A stretch of 5,854 nucleotides of DNA. Source: JAGLHV01 sp023132075 [NCBI: bacterium]. GTDB lineage: Bacteria > CBDUZB01 > JAGLHV01. How positions within the stretch are numbered: the first letter of the stretch is position 1; each line of letters starts with the position of its first letter. Where the stretch lies: contig JAGLYT010000107.1 in assembly GCA_023132075.1 (NCBI GenBank), positions 1 through 5,854 on the forward strand. The letters are read 5' to 3'. Shown piece after piece: positions 88 through 5,854 of the stretch. The position numbers and the translations under genes were made by a program. The notes under the pieces are model-generated. The model did not search any database and had not been told where the DNA came from. It saw only the letters and a list, made by a program, of their open reading frames with translations.

Positions 88-1692
88 ATGAAAAAACAAT
101 TGTTTCTCTCTTCAGACAGAAGAGTTTTTCCACGTATTGAAGTAGATTTACCTGTGGAGTTGAAAGTTAGGGATTCCTTGAATAATTCATCTTCAATTAT
201 CCCTGCAAAAGTCATAAATCTTAGTGAAAATGGGGCATCTCTTCTTTTAAGTGATAATTTACCTATTTTATCGATTGTTAGCCTCAAAATAAATTTACCA
301 TCTCCTTATTTTTCAATAGAGGCTCAATCACAAGTAGTAAGATGCAATTTTGAAAAAGATAAATTTCAGTGTGGGGTATCTTTTTCAGAGGGAGGAAATA
401 AATTTTCTGCATTTATGAATAATGCCTTATGTACAGATTCTTCCCTGGAGCGTAGAAAAGATAAACGGAGGAAAGCAGCAGTAGCAATTGAATTTACACC
501 CCGGAGAAAATTTGATCGTAGAACAAATATAATTCCAAAGGGAAAAGATAAAAATTACAAAAGAGAGTTTATTGATATGCGTAGAGATTGGCTGAGTAAA
601 AAAACAAATGCGGGGTTGTATCATATTGGTCAATATTCAGAACAAGCTGAAAATATGAAAGGAAACATAGAAAATCTAATTGGTGTTTGCCAAGTACCTC
701 TGGGTATTGCCGGTCCATTGAAAATTAATGGTCAATTTGCCAAAGGAGATTTCTATATCCCTTTAGCTACGACTGAAGGGACTTTAGTGAAGACTTACAG
801 TAGAGGGATGCATGTTCTTACTAAAGCCGGTGGTGTAAATGTGGCTGTCCTCACTGACCAAATACATATCTCTCCGGTTTTTATGGTAACTGGTATAAAA
901 GAAGCCAATCAATTTATATGCTGGATTAATAATAATTTTGTAAAAATTAAGTCAAAAGCAGAACAAACAACAAAACATGGAAAATTATTAAGTATTGAAC
1001 CAATCATAATGGGATGCAGGGTAGTTCTTAAATTTTCCTATTTTACTGAAGATGCTCAAGGATTGAACATGATAAATAAAGCTACAGATATTGCATGCAA
1101 ATTTATTTCGGAAGAGACCAATAAAAAATTTCTTCTTAGATCAAATTTTTCTTCTATAAAAAAAGTTTCTATGTATAACCTTTATAAAGGGCAAGGAAAA
1201 GCAATTTTTGCCGATGCAGTTATACCCGGAAGAGTCCTTAAAAGACTTTTACAGGTAACCCCTGAAGAAATGTGTAAATATTATTTTTCCGCTTTACTCT
1301 CAAGTGCTCACAGTGGGATGATAGGTATAACTGCTCACGCAAGTAATGGTATTACTGCTTTATATATCGCATGTGGTCAAGATGTAGCCGATGTATCTCA
1401 TTCTCATATAGGAATTATGACATATGAAATTAAGGAGTCTGAAAATCTTTATGTAAGTCTTTACCTTCCTAATTTGCTTGTTGGAACTGTTGGTGGTGGT
1501 ACTGGATTAGCAACGCCGCAGGAAAATCTTAAAATATTGGGATGTTATGGAACAGGAAAGGCGAAAAAATTGGCTGAAATTATTACTGCTGTTGCTCTTG
1601 CCGGAGAAATTACTTCTATGGCTGCATTAGTAAATGGAACTTATGTTGGGGCACATGAAAAATATGGAAGAAATATCCCTAACAAAATATAG
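88..1692 (+). CDS. PilZ domain fused to class-I HMG-CoA reductase
   Basis: This 534-residue protein has two recognisable parts. Residues ~10-105 form a PilZ domain with both c-di-GMP-binding motifs: RxxxR at R12-R16 and NxSxxG at N44-S46-G49. Residues ~160-534 are an HMG-CoA reductase catalytic domain of the class-I bacterial type, which reduces HMG-CoA to mevalonate with two NAD(P)H. The landmarks are ENLIG (195-199), PLGIAGP (204-210), TTEG with catalytic Glu230, DAQGLNM (322-328, human DAMGMNM), Lys358 (human Lys691), Asn420 and Asp432 (human Asn755 and Asp767), GTVGGGTGL and the C-terminal catalytic His523 in AHEKYGR. Two substitutions stand out: Ile357 where DKK enzymes have Asp, and Ala522 before the His. 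No membrane segment is seen, so it is probably cytosolic. ATG 88 is chosen because AAAGGAGA ends 4 nt before it and it begins just ahead of the PilZ domain. Domain calls are firm; regulation of catalysis by c-di-GMP is inferred. Confidence 0.93.
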   Translation: MKKQLFLSSDRRVFPRIEVDLPVELKVRDSLNNSSSIIPAKVINLSENGASLLLSDNLPILSIVSLKINLPSPYFSIEAQSQVVRCNFEKDKFQCGVSFSEGGNKFSAFMNNALCTDSSLERRKDKRRKAAVAIEFTPRRKFDRRTNIIPKGKDKNYKREFIDMRRDWLSKKTNAGLYHIGQYSEQAENMKGNIENLIGVCQVPLGIAGPLKINGQFAKGDFYIPLATTEGTLVKTYSRGMHVLTKAGGVNVAVLTDQIHISPVFMVTGIKEANQFICWINNNFVKIKSKAEQTTKHGKLLSIEPIIMGCRVVLKFSYFTEDAQGLNMINKATDIACKFISEETNKKFLLRSNFSSIKKVSMYNLYKGQGKAIFADAVIPGRVLKRLLQVTPEEMCKYYFSALLSSAHSGMIGITAHASNGITALYIACGQDVADVSHSHIGIMTYEIKESENLYVSLYLPNLLVGTVGGGTGLATPQENLKILGCYGTGKAKKLAEIITAVALAGEITSMAALVNGTYVGAHEKYGRNIPNKI

Positions 1693-1720: not shown

Positions 1721-3811
1721 ATGATAACTTCTTTTGTAACAATATGTGTGATAAGTTCTATTAGTAGTTTATTTTTCGGAATGCTTGTATACTTTAAAAA
1801 CACAAAAAATAAGATAAATATAACCTGGGGACTGATGAGTTTAAGTATAGCCTTTTGGAGTTTTGGATTGGGATTAATGGTTATCGCAAAAAGTGAAGGA
1901 GAAGCTCTTTTTTGGTTAAAAGGAATACATTATTTTGGAGCAATATTCATTCCTGCATTTTTCCTCCATTTTGTTCTTGCCTTTTTGAATATAGATAAAA
2001 TAAAGAAGAAAGTAATTATCTTTAGCTATTCTTTAGCCATAATCTTGCAGGTTTGTAACTTTACAGGGTTATTTGCAACGGTGAGTCGTAAAGGACCTTT
2101 TAATTATTACACAGAGCCAGGTATGTTTTATATAGTTTTTGTCATTATGTTTTTTGTTTGTGTAGTTTATGCTCATTATTTGTTATTTATTTTTTACAAA
2201 GATTCTTTTGGCCTTAGAAAAAAGCAGATTAAATATCAATTTTTGTCGATGCTGTTAGGTTTTGGTGGAGGCTCAACCACCTTTTTACTGGCTTTTAATA
2301 TTCCGATATTTCCATATGGAATGTATGTTGTTTTTCTCCATGTTCCTATTATGTCCTATGCCATTGTAGCTCATCGCTTGATGGGTATAGAAATTGTCAT
2401 GCAAAAAGCTACCAGGATTATTTTTTCTTTCCTTGTTTCTATTGGGGTTTATTTTGGCCTTTTTTACTTAGGGTATAATATGATAGCGCTTAATGTCTGG
2501 CAGGCCACTATTTTTGCTATTCTACCCTGTATGGTTTGTTTTAGTTTTTTTATCTGGAGGATGCAAAAGGTAATTTTTAAGAAGGAAGAGAGTTATCAGG
2601 ATGCCCTTATCCGTACTGCCGGGGAAATGGTTAAAATTAGGGATCCCTTGAAGTTAATAGGAGAGGTTGCAAATTCAATCTATAATATTATTGAGGCAAG
2701 GCAGATAAGTATATTTTTGTTGGACACTCAGACTAATGAATATGTGCTGCAAATAGCCAAAGGAAGGTCACCTTTGCAGGAGATAGGTTTTCGACTTAAA
2801 AAAAGAGTTCCTATAGTTAGTTGGTTTGATGAAACAGGTGATAAATTCTATAAAGAGGGATTGATTAGTGAAACGGAGAAGAATTTTTTACAATTAGATA
2901 TTGTAAAGGAGTGGTTGAATGAAGAGAGATTCTTGAATAGTGAGGAAAAAGTAGTAATGGCTTTAAAAGAAATAGAATCTCAAATGGGAATATTGAGGTC
3001 AAGTTTAATCATTCCAAGTCGTTATGAGCAAAGGATGCTTGGCTTTTTATGTTTGGGAGGAAGAGAAGGGGTTAAGTATACAAAGAGAGATGTTGAAGTT
3101 TTGAGTGGTTTTGCAGATGATGTTGCAATGAATATAAGAAATGCTTTTTTAATTCAGGACCTTCGTCAAAAAGTTCATGAAAAAGCAAAATTAAACAGGG
3201 ACCGGTATGATGCTTATCAGAGGTTAGAAACGATTTTCAAAGAGATTGTTTCCGCATTTGCAATGACTGTTAGTAAGATTGACCCTGATTATACTTATGA
3301 ACATGTAGAAAAGACTTCTAAATATGCTCAGAAATTGGTAGATGAATTACAACCAAAAGAGATAACGGAAAAAATTATTTCCAGGGATATGTTTTTTGCC
3401 GGAATACTTCTCCACGATATAGGAAAAATATTTATTCCAAAAAATATTTTAAATAAACCGGGCTCTTTAACTGATGAGGAATGGAAAATAATTAAGAGGC
3501 ATCCGGTAGATGGGTTTGAATTATTGAAAAACATAAAAGGGATGGAGATAAGTGCCGAAATAATCAGGCATCATCATGAGAGAATAGATGGAAAGGGTTA
3601 TCCGGATGGATTGAAAGGGGACCAGATTTCTATGGGGGCAAAGATCGTTTGTGTAGTTGATTCTTTTGAAGCAATGACTGCTGACCGTCCATACAGAAAA
3701 GCAAAACTAAAAGAAGAGGCAATAACACAACTTATAGAAAATAGTGGGACGCAGTTTGATCCTCAAGTAGTAAATGTTTTTGTGGAACTATGTGAAAAAG
3801 GAGAAATTTAA
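1721..3811 (+). CDS. Membrane 7TM-type sensor with GAF-like and HD-GYP domains (c-di-GMP phosphodiesterase)
   Basis: This 696-residue protein probably hydrolyses cyclic-di-GMP in response to a membrane or cytoplasmic signal. Residues 1-280 hold about nine hydrophobic segments (near 4-25, 34-56, 69-89, 98-119, 135-158, 172-194, 198-217, 232-251 and 259-279). The first seven resemble the N-terminal 7TM region of some histidine kinases, including the AxxRLxxIEIVMQKATR-like exit. A GAF-like domain spans ~300-480 and contains a charged insertion. A short helical linker (~483-512) leads to HD-GYP at ~515-690. Its metal-site residues all appear present: His528, His565-Asp566 (HDIGK), His594 (RHP), His618-His619 and Asp647, with the signature HHExxDGxGYP at 618-628 and DRPYR after it. 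No kinase or GGDEF domain is present. It starts 28 nt after the PilZ-HMGR stop behind AAAAAGGAA (1706-1714 region), so the two are likely co-transcribed. The input signal is unknown. A complete motif set argues for activity, but some HD-GYP proteins prefer other cyclic dinucleotides. Confidence 0.93.
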   Translation: MITSFVTICVISSISSLFFGMLVYFKNTKNKINITWGLMSLSIAFWSFGLGLMVIAKSEGEALFWLKGIHYFGAIFIPAFFLHFVLAFLNIDKIKKKVIIFSYSLAIILQVCNFTGLFATVSRKGPFNYYTEPGMFYIVFVIMFFVCVVYAHYLLFIFYKDSFGLRKKQIKYQFLSMLLGFGGGSTTFLLAFNIPIFPYGMYVVFLHVPIMSYAIVAHRLMGIEIVMQKATRIIFSFLVSIGVYFGLFYLGYNMIALNVWQATIFAILPCMVCFSFFIWRMQKVIFKKEESYQDALIRTAGEMVKIRDPLKLIGEVANSIYNIIEARQISIFLLDTQTNEYVLQIAKGRSPLQEIGFRLKKRVPIVSWFDETGDKFYKEGLISETEKNFLQLDIVKEWLNEERFLNSEEKVVMALKEIESQMGILRSSLIIPSRYEQRMLGFLCLGGREGVKYTKRDVEVLSGFADDVAMNIRNAFLIQDLRQKVHEKAKLNRDRYDAYQRLETIFKEIVSAFAMTVSKIDPDYTYEHVEKTSKYAQKLVDELQPKEITEKIISRDMFFAGILLHDIGKIFIPKNILNKPGSLTDEEWKIIKRHPVDGFELLKNIKGMEISAEIIRHHHERIDGKGYPDGLKGDQISMGAKIVCVVDSFEAMTADRPYRKAKLKEEAITQLIENSGTQFDPQVVNVFVELCEKGEI

Positions 3812-3981: not shown

Positions 3982-4059
3982 GGCGCCATCGTCTAGCCCG
4001 GTCCAGGACGTAGCCCTCTCAAGGCTAAGACACGGGTTCAAATCCCGTTGGCGCTACCA
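3982..4059 (+). tRNA. tRNA-Glu (anticodon CTC)
   Basis: The sequence folds into a full cloverleaf. The acceptor stem pairs 3982-3988 with 4049-4055 (6 Watson-Crick pairs plus a terminal G-T). The D arm carries the TCGTCTAG start typical of tRNA-Glu. The anticodon stem pairs 4011-4015 with 4023-4027 around the loop CTCTCAA, giving anticodon CTC (4018-4020), which reads GAG. The T stem ACGGG/CCCGT (4032-4036 with 4044-4048) encloses TTCAAAT. The discriminator is A4056 and CCA is encoded at 4057-4059. The four-base variable region and the T-A pair at positions 11-24 fit known bacterial glutamate identity features. The gene looks intact and functional. Confidence 0.96.
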
Positions 4060-4093: not shown

Positions 4094-5389
4094 ATGGTTA
4101 AAAAAAGAAGAAGAATTACTCTTCTTATGAGTGCTTTTTTGTTTATTCAGGCAGGTTTTTGTTGGGGTGGAGGATTTGAAGGGCCGGGATTAGGCATCAG
4201 AGCAAATTCTATGGGGGGTGCTTTTATTGCTATGGCGGATGATTGGACGGCCGGTTATTGGAATCCTGCAGGATTAGCTCAACTCGAAGGAACAGGAATG
4301 GGGATTGTGGTAGATTGTGTAACGGTAATAGGGAAAGACGGTAATTCTATCGCTAATGGCAGTATTTTAGATCCGAATTATCCTGACGAAAACCAGGGGG
4401 ATATTTTTTATCAGGTTCCGCCGGGTGTTGAACCATTGCAGTTTGATAAAAAGGATATTACAGTTATTTCTTATTTGCCGGGTATAGGGGTATACAAAGA
4501 GATTAAGGGATATTTCACTATAGAAGCGAGCATTTACGAGCCGATAGGCTATAGCTCTAAATGGAAAGATATGGTGGGAGGAGTAGACGGGGTAAATGCT
4601 TTTTACGAGGAAACTTTTTATACTGTGGTTTATAATACGTCTCTTGCCAGAAAAATGTCCTCTAAGTTATTACTGGGGGCGGGATTAAATATTCTTCAGG
4701 GAAAATGGGAAAAAGAAGCAAGAAAGACAACTTTAGATTACAATTGTAAGTCTGGGATGGATGGGGATGGGACCGGATACGAAGGAGTTTTTGGGTTTTT
4801 ATATTCTCTTCCATGGGACAAGATGAAATTAGGTGGTGTTTATAGAACCGGAAGTGAAATTTCCCTTGAGGGAAAGGGTTTTGTTGAAGATCTTCGATTA
4901 GGCATAGATGAACGGACAAATTATACACAAAAATTCAATTATCCGGCTACTTACGGAATAGGAATTATTGGTAATCCTTTGCGTAAACTTACGCTTAGTT
5001 TTGATTGGCAGGCTACTGATTGGACAAAAATAAAAAGGGATATAGATTTTGATAATGACAGCGGAGCCGCTTTTGTCGATTTTGATGAAAATTTAAAATG
5101 GGAAAAGACAGAACGGATTCGTATCGGCGGAGAATATAATTTTGATAAGAATTTTGCTGCAAGAATCGGCTTTTATACCGATCCTACACCTGTTCCTGAT
5201 GAACAGGTAAGCCTGACGAATGTTCTGGATGTAGATAGAAACAATATAACTTTTGGCGGTGGGTATAGTGAAAAAGATTGGCAGGTTGATATTGGATACA
5301 TTTATGGCTGGGGTAGTAAAACAATAAATGAAGTGAGATACAAAAAAGAAGTTGGTTCTTTTCAGGTTGCTTTTAGTTATTTGTTTTAA
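4094..5389 (+). CDS. OmpP1/FadL-family outer-membrane transport protein
   Basis: This 431-residue protein is a likely outer-membrane beta-barrel of the FadL/TodX/OmpP1 family, whose members carry hydrophobic compounds such as fatty acids or aromatics across the outer membrane. The N-terminus is a signal peptide: a basic KKRRR cluster (residues 3-7), a hydrophobic core (~8-21), and cleavage probably within ~20-25. The mature protein opens with the family-like block RANSMGGAFIAMADD (36-50) followed by NPAGLA (57-62). The rest alternates polar and hydrophobic residues with many aromatic, Gly and Asp residues, as in barrel strands. It ends in FSYLF, a terminal Phe expected for recognition by the BAM machinery. 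The length suits the family. The start follows AAGGTGA (4084-4090 region) and lies 34 nt after tRNA-Glu, leaving little room for its own promoter. Substrate cannot be told from sequence, and a PorV-like or UPF0164 relative is possible. Confidence 0.85.
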   Translation: MVKKRRRITLLMSAFLFIQAGFCWGGGFEGPGLGIRANSMGGAFIAMADDWTAGYWNPAGLAQLEGTGMGIVVDCVTVIGKDGNSIANGSILDPNYPDENQGDIFYQVPPGVEPLQFDKKDITVISYLPGIGVYKEIKGYFTIEASIYEPIGYSSKWKDMVGGVDGVNAFYEETFYTVVYNTSLARKMSSKLLLGAGLNILQGKWEKEARKTTLDYNCKSGMDGDGTGYEGVFGFLYSLPWDKMKLGGVYRTGSEISLEGKGFVEDLRLGIDERTNYTQKFNYPATYGIGIIGNPLRKLTLSFDWQATDWTKIKRDIDFDNDSGAAFVDFDENLKWEKTERIRIGGEYNFDKNFAARIGFYTDPTPVPDEQVSLTNVLDVDRNNITFGGGYSEKDWQVDIGYIYGWGSKTINEVRYKKEVGSFQVAFSYLF

Positions 5390-5449: not shown

Positions 5450-5854
5450 GTGACTTATACGGAAAGTTCAATCAGGATAAAAGGCGACATTAATACTGTA
5501 TTTAGTGTTTTTACCGATATGGAGAATTATCCTGAATTTGTTCCTTATTGCCGGGAAGCAAGAATAATTAAAGAAGAAACAGACGAAATAATAATTGTTG
5601 AAATGAAAATTAAAATAAACGGGATAACGAATAAAGAGAGAGCCAGGGTTTTTTTTTCAAAAAGCGATTTTTGTTTTAAAGCAGAACAATTAAAAGGAGT
5701 ATTAAAACAATTGAATTGGGTAGTTAAAATGAAACAGGTTTTTTCCGAAGTGGAAGTTGTTTCCAGGCATGATTTTGATTTGGGAATTCCTATAATTGGA
5801 AAATTAATAGAGCAATTAATAATAAAAAAATTTTTTATGGAAAAAACAGAAAAA
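5450..5854 (+). CDS. RatA/COQ10-like START-superfamily (SRPBCC) protein, 3' end outside window
   Basis: From GTG 5450 the frame is open for 135 codons to the window edge, with no stop, so the gene is partial. The N-terminus has the hallmark START-like pattern of the RatA/COQ10/polyketide-cyclase group: a first strand (YTESSIRIKGD), a helix (INTVFSVFTDMENYPEFVP), and then YCREARIIKEE. The phrase DMENYPEFVPYC, near residues 24-35, matches the usual D(V/I)xxYPxFLPxC. Alternating charged beta-strands follow, up to a C-terminal amphipathic segment around residues 110-130 (IPIIGKLIEQLI). Such proteins form a hydrophobic cavity. COQ10 members bind quinone lipids, and RatA has been reported to act on ribosomes. 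It lies 60 nt after the outer-membrane protein gene with no terminator seen, so co-transcription is likely. The precise ligand is unknown. Confidence 0.75.
   Translation, partial: MTYTESSIRIKGDINTVFSVFTDMENYPEFVPYCREARIIKEETDEIIIVEMKIKINGITNKERARVFFSKSDFCFKAEQLKGVLKQLNWVVKMKQVFSEVEVVSRHDFDLGIPIIGKLIEQLIIKKFFMEKTEK

What the first reader, a model, noticed from the sequence alone, without database searches (positions are those of the whole stretch)
88..1692. c-di-GMP receptor domain fused to HMG-CoA reductase
One uninterrupted reading frame joins an intact PilZ domain (R12xxxR16 and N44xS46xxG49) to a full HMG-CoA reductase catalytic domain (Glu230, Lys358, Asp432, His523). PilZ domains usually control motility, polysaccharide synthesis or transcription. 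I do not recall one attached to the mevalonate pathway's committed enzyme. The eukaryotic enzyme carries an N-terminal membrane sterol-sensing region in the same position, so this would be an independent solution: a second-messenger sensor placed on HMG-CoA reductase. The inference is that c-di-GMP tunes isoprenoid precursor supply allosterically.
Basis: partly seen in the sequence, partly recalled or inferred. Interest (0 to 1): 0.9.

Follow-up and report, generated by a model that had tools for sequence, protein, structure and literature searches.

The report
Receptor-linked HMG-CoA-reductase-like signalling gene pair
A bacterial gene that joins a signal-receiving domain to an enzyme resembling the target of statins sits beside a gene for a seven-helix membrane sensor, and the same pair recurs in several little-known bacterial groups that do not appear to make isoprenoids with this enzyme, so the enzyme may have been recruited for signalling.

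Summary
In detail: window 88-1692 is one open frame with a Pfam PilZ domain and a complete class I HMG-CoA reductase (HMGR) domain; all named motif residues are present. It is not an artefact: seven other genomes carry a PilZ-HMGR (Elusimicrobiota, Omnitrophota, Nitrospirota including Manganitrophus, bacterium Cli_8). The larger finding is the next gene. In 17 of 20 related HMGR loci it encodes a seven-helix, usually GAF-bearing sensor with HD-GYP (window), GGDEF or histidine-kinase output. The HMGR N-terminus is PilZ (8), a response-regulator receiver (4, one by eye) or short (8). Eighteen of these HMGRs form one clade (98/97). The mevalonate reading fails: HMG-CoA synthase and MDD were found in 0 of 11 genomes, the MEP enzyme DXR in 9. 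Catalytic residues are mostly kept, but pocket residue Arg590 is hydrophobic in 20 of 20, against Arg in 71 of 77 others. Best reading: a 7TM-sensor module whose output is a receiver-gated HMGR-fold reductase, probably not acting on HMG-CoA. Bolder: it makes the ligand its partner senses. Binding, activity, substrate and product were not tested.

The parts
88..1692 (+). PilZ-HMGR fusion protein, 534 aa
   Evidence: one open frame; Pfam
115..390 (+). PilZ domain (aa 10-101), RxxxR at aa 12-16 and NxSxxG at aa 44-49
   Evidence: Pfam PF07238 E 1.4e-10; motifs; beta strands at aa 21-82 in the AlphaFold2 model, block-mean pLDDT 44-68 for aa 11-90
391..573 (+). low-confidence linker (aa 102-162), rich in Arg/Lys
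   Evidence: pLDDT under 50 for aa 84-146
574..1671 (+). class I HMGR catalytic domain (aa 163-528); Glu230, Lys358, Asp432, His523 kept; human R590/S684/D690 positions are I/R/I
   Evidence: Pfam PF00368 E 1.1e-110; best PDB match 6hr7; residue tables
1721..3811 (+). partner gene: 7TM-GAF-HD-GYP sensor, 696 aa, 28 bases between it and the HMGR stop codon
   Evidence: Pfam HisKA_7TM 1.7e-15, GAF 1.1e-5, HD_5 4.7e-38; HDIGK and HHERIDGKGYP motifs; a homologue is the next gene in 16 of the 19 other loci of the set
1748..2389 (+). 7TM sensor region (aa 10-223), with a predicted beta hairpin (aa 119-133) between helices 4 and 5
   Evidence: Pfam PF16927; AlphaFold2 model mean pLDDT 79.7
4094..5389 (+). 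FadL/TodX-type outer-membrane transporter; a homologue lies 8 bases upstream of PilZ-HMGR in L035; possible part of the system, separated here by a tRNA gene
   Evidence: Pfam Toluene_X 3.2e-25; 37% identity, 6e-85 to L035 241-1563

Best explanation
The gene pair is a signalling module. A membrane sensor (seven helices, usually plus GAF) controls an HMGR-fold reductase through an N-terminal receiver domain on the enzyme. In the window the sensor's HD-GYP output would lower c-di-GMP, and the PilZ domain of the reductase would read that change and switch the enzyme. In sister systems the same job would be done by a histidine kinase with a receiver domain fused to the reductase, or by a GGDEF cyclase with PilZ. 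The reductase most likely performs an NAD(P)H-dependent reduction of an acyl thioester other than HMG-CoA; it does not feed a mevalonate pathway. Shown by computation: the fusion, the conserved pairing, the domain swaps, the clade, the pathway genes not found, the kept catalytic residues and the changed pocket. Inferred: c-di-GMP binding, allosteric gating, the direction of signalling, and the substrate.
For: Pairing: in 17 of 20 HMGR loci of this kind (window; 16 of 19 others) the next gene on the same strand is a 7TM homologue, from an 8-base overlap to a 211-base gap. It was first found by BLAST with only the window and G144 sensors as queries. Of the 78 loci only 6 have one; five of these six are in the clade and the sixth, L040, was not in the tree. 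Output domains vary: HD-GYP (window, L201), GGDEF (L033/L042), histidine kinase in 11. Receiver swap: PilZ in 8 of 20, Pfam Response_reg in L202, L203, L204. Clade: 18 of the 20 against 28 other rows, support 98/97. Pathway: PF01154 0 of 11, PF18376 0 of 11, PF02670 9 of 11. Pocket: human R590 position hydrophobic in 20 of 20 against Arg in 71 of 77 others; S684 position Arg in 16 of 20; D690 kept in 7 of 20 against 75 of 77; K691, D767 and N755 20 of 20 and E559 18 of 20. These positions line the ligand pocket of characterised HMGRs (passages of PMC9500038, and PMC3875450). Acyl-carrier context: ketoacyl synthase and ACP genes near HMGR in L200 and L201, ACP in L207.
Against: No biochemistry. 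PilZ presence does not track c-di-GMP enzymes strictly: of 8 PilZ-HMGR loci, the window and L042 have HD-GYP or GGDEF in the sensor and L035 has it in the gene after a kinase sensor; L034, L195, L196 and L197 have a kinase, L040 no identified output. Two loci without PilZ also have HD-GYP: L201 and, further downstream and by BLAST only, L198. L195 and L040 have Gly for the Ser of the PilZ motif, and in L042 no PilZ copy carries both motifs. L197 (E559Q, H866D) and L201 (E559Q) look catalytically altered. K735, which binds the HMG carboxylate in human HMGR, is not among the five commonest letters of the 77 comparison rows either, six of those rows also lack Arg590, and their activities are unverified, so pocket changes alone do not prove a new substrate. 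L203 has no sensor within the stretch read. The two congeners of the window lack the gene.
Confidence: 0.6

Rival explanations
1. One reading: a mevalonate-pathway HMGR placed under allosteric c-di-GMP control to tune isoprenoid supply.
For: Complete HMGR domain with catalytic residues; PilZ motif intact.
Against: HMG-CoA synthase 0 of 11 and MDD 0 of 11 genomes, DXR 9 of 11; S565, R590, S684 and D690 replaced in the window; sits in a clade marked by a sensor partner.
Confidence: 0.07
2. Signal synthase and receptor pair: the reductase makes a hydrophobic alcohol or aldehyde from an acyl-CoA/ACP, it is exported, and the adjacent 7TM protein senses it; the receiver domain closes a feedback loop, in the manner of CqsA/CqsS.
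For: Gene pairing with a 7TM sensor whose output is interchangeable; synthase and sensor genes are usually adjacent in quorum-sensing systems (passage of PMC3376566); KS/ACP neighbours; FadL-type transporter near the pair in the window, L035 and L197.
Against: No product or ligand known; FadL was found at three loci, KS plus ACP at two and ACP alone at a third; the REC-HMGR arrangement equally fits an enzyme that is only an output of the sensor. A FadL-like gene also sits beside a PilZ protein at L133, where no HMGR was found.
Confidence: 0.25
3. Pseudo-enzyme: the HMGR domain binds a CoA thioester or NAD(P)H and reports metabolic state rather than catalysing.
For: E559Q in L197 and L201, H866D in L197; K692H in L202, L203, L204 and L205.
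Against: The window keeps E559, K691, K692, N755, D767 and H866, and 18 of 20 keep E559.
Confidence: 0.12
4. The fusion is an assembly or annotation artefact.
For: Short contig (5854 bases) of an 86.7% complete assembly; absent in two congeners.
Against: Seven other genomes carry it, with the same kind of neighbour.
Confidence: 0.01

Closest known systems
Class I HMG-CoA reductase (best PDB match 6hr7/6hr8, Methanothermococcus thermolithotrophicus; human HMGCR)
   Same: fold, full-length domain, catalytic Glu/Lys/Asp/His
   Different: receiver domain on the N-terminus, sensor partner, changed R590/S684/D690 positions, no HMG-CoA synthase or MDD found in 11 genomes
PilZ-domain c-di-GMP effectors (PF07238)
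   Same: RxxxR and NxSxxG motifs, beta-strand-rich region
   Different: the fused partner is an HMGR-type enzyme; binding not tested
Two-component systems with HisKA_7TM sensor kinases
   Same: HisKA_7TM sensor; in L204 a kinase sits beside a REC-fused protein
   Different: the REC or PilZ output is an HMGR-fold reductase; in the window the kinase half is HD-GYP. The two papers found for HisKA_7TM name it only as a sensor domain in the passages seen (PMC6944256; PMC5847659)
CqsA/CqsS-type quorum-sensing pairs (analogy only)
   Same: a gene for an acyl-CoA-using enzyme near a membrane sensor gene (passages of PMC3376566)
   Different: CqsA is a PLP enzyme; that it is unrelated to HMGR is recalled; no ligand shown here
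Bacterial HMGR with PF25653 HMG-CoA_red_N domain
   Same: class I HMGR with an N-terminal extension (L009)
   Different: different N-domain, no 7TM neighbour in the stretch held

Membership tests
PilZ domain, c-di-GMP binding type | profile match above Pfam cut-off | tested here: met
   41.9 bits against 22.5
PilZ domain, c-di-GMP binding type | RxxxR and [D/N]xSxxG motifs | tested here: met
   R12-R16, N44-S46-G49
PilZ domain, c-di-GMP binding type | binds c-di-GMP | not testable with these tools
   needs purified protein
Class I HMG-CoA reductase | full-length HMG-CoA_red domain and fold | tested here: met
   PF00368 3-368/368; 6hr7 E 1.2e-39
Class I HMG-CoA reductase | catalytic Glu, Lys, Asp, His | tested here: met
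   E230, K358, D432, H523
Class I HMG-CoA reductase | HMG-pocket residues shared by human and 6hr7 (S565, R590, S684, D690, K735) | tested here: not met
   T, I, R, I, S in the window
Class I HMG-CoA reductase | NCBIfam equivalog cut-off TIGR00533 | tested here: not met
   320 against 441.8 bits
Mevalonate pathway enzyme | HMG-CoA synthase and lower-pathway decarboxylase in the genome | tested here: not met
   0 of 11 genomes for each; own assembly is 86.7% complete
HD-GYP c-di-GMP phosphodiesterase (partner gene) | HDxGK and HHExxDGxGYP motifs | tested here: met
   aa 565 and 617-628
Two-component system with HMGR output (sister loci) | sensor kinase next to a receiver-domain protein | tested here: met
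   L204: REC-HMGR plus 7TM-GAF-HATPase; phosphotransfer not tested
Quorum-sensing synthase/receptor pair | enzyme product is the ligand of the adjacent receptor | not testable with these tools
   only gene adjacency seen
GPCR-like seven-helix receptor | homology to eukaryotic GPCRs | tested here: inconclusive
   Foldseek best E 3.1e-3; VIA Z 17.2 for rank 1, then 13-15, at or little above the level the tool reports for common helical bundles

The most novel reading that the evidence does not exclude
An undescribed cell-signalling family in poorly known bacterial phyla: an HMGR-fold reductase was recruited from the mevalonate enzyme family to make a lipid-like signal from an acyl-CoA or acyl-ACP, the adjacent 7TM protein is its receptor, and c-di-GMP (PilZ) or phosphorylation (REC) gates the synthase, closing a loop in one operon.
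Probability: 0.25. Interest if true: 0.93.

Novelty: new variant of a known kind. Interest (0 to 1): 0.78.

Why it matters
If right, the HMGR fold is not only a mevalonate enzyme but a signal-controlled output domain that can be wired to c-di-GMP or to phosphorylation. It gives a ready test set (window protein, a REC-HMGR, their 7TM partners) for how a metabolic enzyme is gated by c-di-GMP. It also warns against reading an HMGR gene as evidence of a mevalonate pathway in uncultured bacteria, because no HMG-CoA synthase or MDD was found in the 11 genomes tested here, and 9 of them have the MEP enzyme DXR.

Tried and rejected
Artefact: rejected, since seven other genomes have the fusion. Mobile element: P0001 against plasmids gave 39 records, none with one place covering 80% of the query, and the eight records listed match only the HMGR part; against phages one fragment, an HMGR piece of Halorubrum virus BJ1. 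PrsK (PEP-CTERM kinase) identity of the sensor: TIGR02916 matches L035, L037, L198 and L033 but below its cut-off of 300 bits (144, 86, 127 and 19), so not assigned. GPCR homology of the 7TM region: not claimed. A statistical link between PilZ and c-di-GMP output in the partner: too few loci and not clean, so not claimed. Literature: searches showed no paper on PilZ-HMGR or an HMGR-7TM pair among the titles and abstract starts listed (20 of 85 listed); the library lacks most subscription papers, so absence from print is not established. One paper (PMC12419801, passages only) mentions HMGR and GHMP kinase near Lipocone genes, a different context. The quick 97-row tree left the clade's branch without support (0); a careful 46-row tree, with 18 sensor-linked rows and 28 of the 79 other rows chosen by me, gave 98/97.

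Left out before counts: partial or duplicate loci, rows under 250 aa and the far rows L003 and L019. The broken HMGR pieces of L128/L207, L129/L208, L130/L209 and L107 are not among the 20, although L207 and L209 also have the 7TM gene 3 bases downstream. L040 and L205 are among the 20 but not in the trees. Second HMGR copies listed without a locus, or not read (G085, G854, G837), were not checked for a neighbour. The HMMs were built from some of the sequences they were then run on, so their E-values for those rows are not independent. The second, weaker PilZ copy of L042/P0002 rests on Pfam at a loose limit (two stretches at E up to 10) and on my own HMM.

Full report
Observation. The frame 88-1692 is open and encodes 534 residues. 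Pfam finds PilZ at 10-101 (E 1.4e-10) and the whole HMG-CoA reductase domain at 163-528 (E 1.1e-110). AlphaFold2 gives a mostly confident HMGR domain and a beta-rich PilZ region at modest confidence, joined by a low-confidence linker (mean pLDDT 74.4); the nearest solved structure is 6hr7 from Methanothermococcus.

Genome. The window is the whole 5854-base contig C10 of a 1.87 Mb assembly, 86.7% complete. The phylum, as held, has three genomes, all of one genus, and the other two have no match. Among 386 genomes searched next (G000 and congeners included), one more fusion appeared in the loci fetched: G144, the same record as L042, bacterium Cli_8, with a clear PilZ and a weaker second PilZ-like copy.

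Spread. A scan of GTDB contigs gave 78 relatives. With searches of 384, 395 and 340 genomes from the phyla of L035 (Omnitrophota), L037 (Nitrospirae) and L034 (Elusimicrobia) (phylum names come from record titles), eight PilZ-HMGR proteins are in hand: the window, L034, L035, L040 (Manganitrophus, HMGR end frameshifted), L042, L195 and L196 (Nitrospirota search) and L197 (Elusimicrobiota search), each above the Pfam PilZ cut-off. It is rare: 1 of 384, 2 of 395 and 2 of 340 in those three searches.

The partner gene. The next gene in the window, 28 bases on, encodes a HisKA_7TM-GAF-HD-GYP protein with intact HD-GYP motifs. BLAST with this protein and the G144 neighbour found homologues directly after the HMGR gene in further loci. 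Over the 20 HMGRs of this kind, 17 have the 7TM gene next on the same strand, from an 8-base overlap to a 211-base gap (window; others). The exceptions are L201 (one gene between), L036 (no sensor on its short contig; another contig of the same genome has the HMGR end followed by a 7TM match) and L203 (none within the stretch; one about 7 kb away). The output half differs: HD-GYP (window, L201), GGDEF (L033/L042), histidine kinase in 11 (L034, L035, L037, L195, L196, L197, L198, L199, L200, L204, L206); in L202, L038 and L040 no output domain was found in the frame scanned, and L205 was not scanned. GAF was not reported for L197, L038 and L040. In L035 the following gene is REC-HD-GYP. In the listed part each of 21 genomes has between one and seven matches to the 7TM part (my count from the query ranges; the list is cut off), so chance adjacency is not a credible explanation. 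The two congeners of the window show one listed 7TM match each, more like the second 7TM protein of G000 (C383) than like the window's, so the pair seems absent from them as a unit.

Receiver swap. In L202, L203 and L204 the N-terminus is a response-regulator receiver domain (E 8e-26 to 1e-27); L205 looks the same by eye but is partly masked. The other eight of the 20 (L036, L037, L038, L198, L199, L200, L201, L206) have only 17-69 residues before the HMGR domain and no PilZ match; of these only L198 and L206 were Pfam-scanned. Two different receiver types thus sit in one position in front of the same enzyme, next to the same kind of sensor. This is the main argument that the enzyme is an output of the sensor.

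Phylogeny. In a careful tree of 46 HMGR domains the 18 sensor-linked rows are separated from 28 others by one branch (98/97). In the 97-row quick tree the same split has no support, and there PilZ needs five changes and REC one, so receiver domains were probably gained, lost or exchanged within one clade.

Metabolic context. Eleven genomes were tested: eight with an HMGR of the set (G000, G144 and those of L034, L035, L036, L037, L038, L040), that of L107 (a broken relative) and the two congeners without HMGR. HMG-CoA synthase PF01154 was found in none and MDD_C PF18376 in none; DXR PF02670 was found in nine, including six of the eight. G000 and the L035 genome lack a DXR match; G000 is incomplete and both congeners have it. 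The models ring in 7, 3 and 10 of 14 control genomes respectively. The mevalonate reading is therefore unlikely.

Active site. Against 77 other HMGR-family rows, the 20 sensor-linked ones keep K691, D767 and N755 (20 of 20), E559 (18 of 20) and H866 (17 of the 18 that reach it), but R590 is I, V, L or F in 20 of 20 (Arg in 71 of 77), the S684 position is Arg in 16 (Glu in 61 of 77), D690 is kept in 7 (75 of 77), and S565 is Thr in 17 (Ser in 76 of 77). R590, S684, D690, K691, K692 and N755 contact the ligand in the human and plant enzymes (passages of PMC9500038; see also passages of PMC3875450). The comparison rows are not themselves verified HMG-CoA reductases, and K735 is not among their five commonest letters. 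I read this as a kept reaction and a changed acyl pocket.

Neighbours that hint at the substrate. KS and ACP genes lie before HMGR in L200 and L201, an ACP gene before the broken HMGR of L207. A FadL/TodX-type transporter gene lies 8 bases before PilZ-HMGR in L035, before it in L197, and after the tRNA-Glu gene in the window. These are few loci and only suggestive of a hydrophobic acyl product.

Sensor. The 7TM region is predicted as seven helices with a beta hairpin between helices 4 and 5, followed by two further helices (mean pLDDT 79.7). Comparison with solved structures finds seven-helix receptors, but at levels that helical bundles can reach. No ligand is known to me; the two papers found for HisKA_7TM name it only as a sensor domain in the passages seen.

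Mechanism proposed. 7TM(-GAF) senses a ligand; HD-GYP, GGDEF or kinase output changes c-di-GMP or phosphorylation; PilZ or REC on the reductase reads it; the HMGR-fold domain changes its rate of reduction of an acyl thioester. The bolder form, in which the product is the sensor's ligand, rests on gene adjacency of the kind seen in quorum-sensing pairs (passage of PMC3376566). No step of regulation or catalysis was measured.

Noticed in passing
L014 (G120), frame 1-872 on the - strand: HMGR appears fused behind an AMP-dependent acyl ligase and an ACP-like stretch (read by eye, not Pfam-scanned).
   Followed up: no
L210 1361-4063 (-): A 900-aa protein with HMGR followed by an EcKL/APH-type kinase domain, possibly HMGR plus a small-molecule kinase in one chain.
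   Followed up: no
L009 (G085; also, by sequence likeness, L007, L008, L012): Class I HMGR with the PF25653 HMG-CoA_red_N domain (L009 only), another N-terminal addition of unknown role; no 7TM gene in the stretches held for L007-L009.
   Followed up: partly
L040 5968-7715: The Manganitrophus GAC4 PilZ-HMGR is split near its 3' end between two frames, whereas the L195 relative is intact.
   Followed up: no
L036 1995-3008 (-) and L208 4538-5697 (-): Transposase-like genes (by eye) stand next to truncated HMGR genes in Omnitrophota.
   Followed up: no
L033 upstream of 8800: In G144 the pair lies beside ParA/ParB-like and phage- or plasmid-like genes (by eye), hinting at mobility.
   Followed up: no
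L206, L201, L196: Several 7TM proteins at one HMGR locus (three in L206, two in L201; two 7TM stretches within one protein in L196).
   Followed up: no
L133 72-2868: A FadL-like gene sits directly before a 482-aa protein with a PilZ match, without HMGR.
   Followed up: no
window 3982-4059: tRNA-Glu (CTC) gene between the signalling pair and the FadL-like gene.
   Followed up: no
window 5450-5854: Partial polyketide-cyclase/START-like gene cut by the contig end.
   Followed up: no
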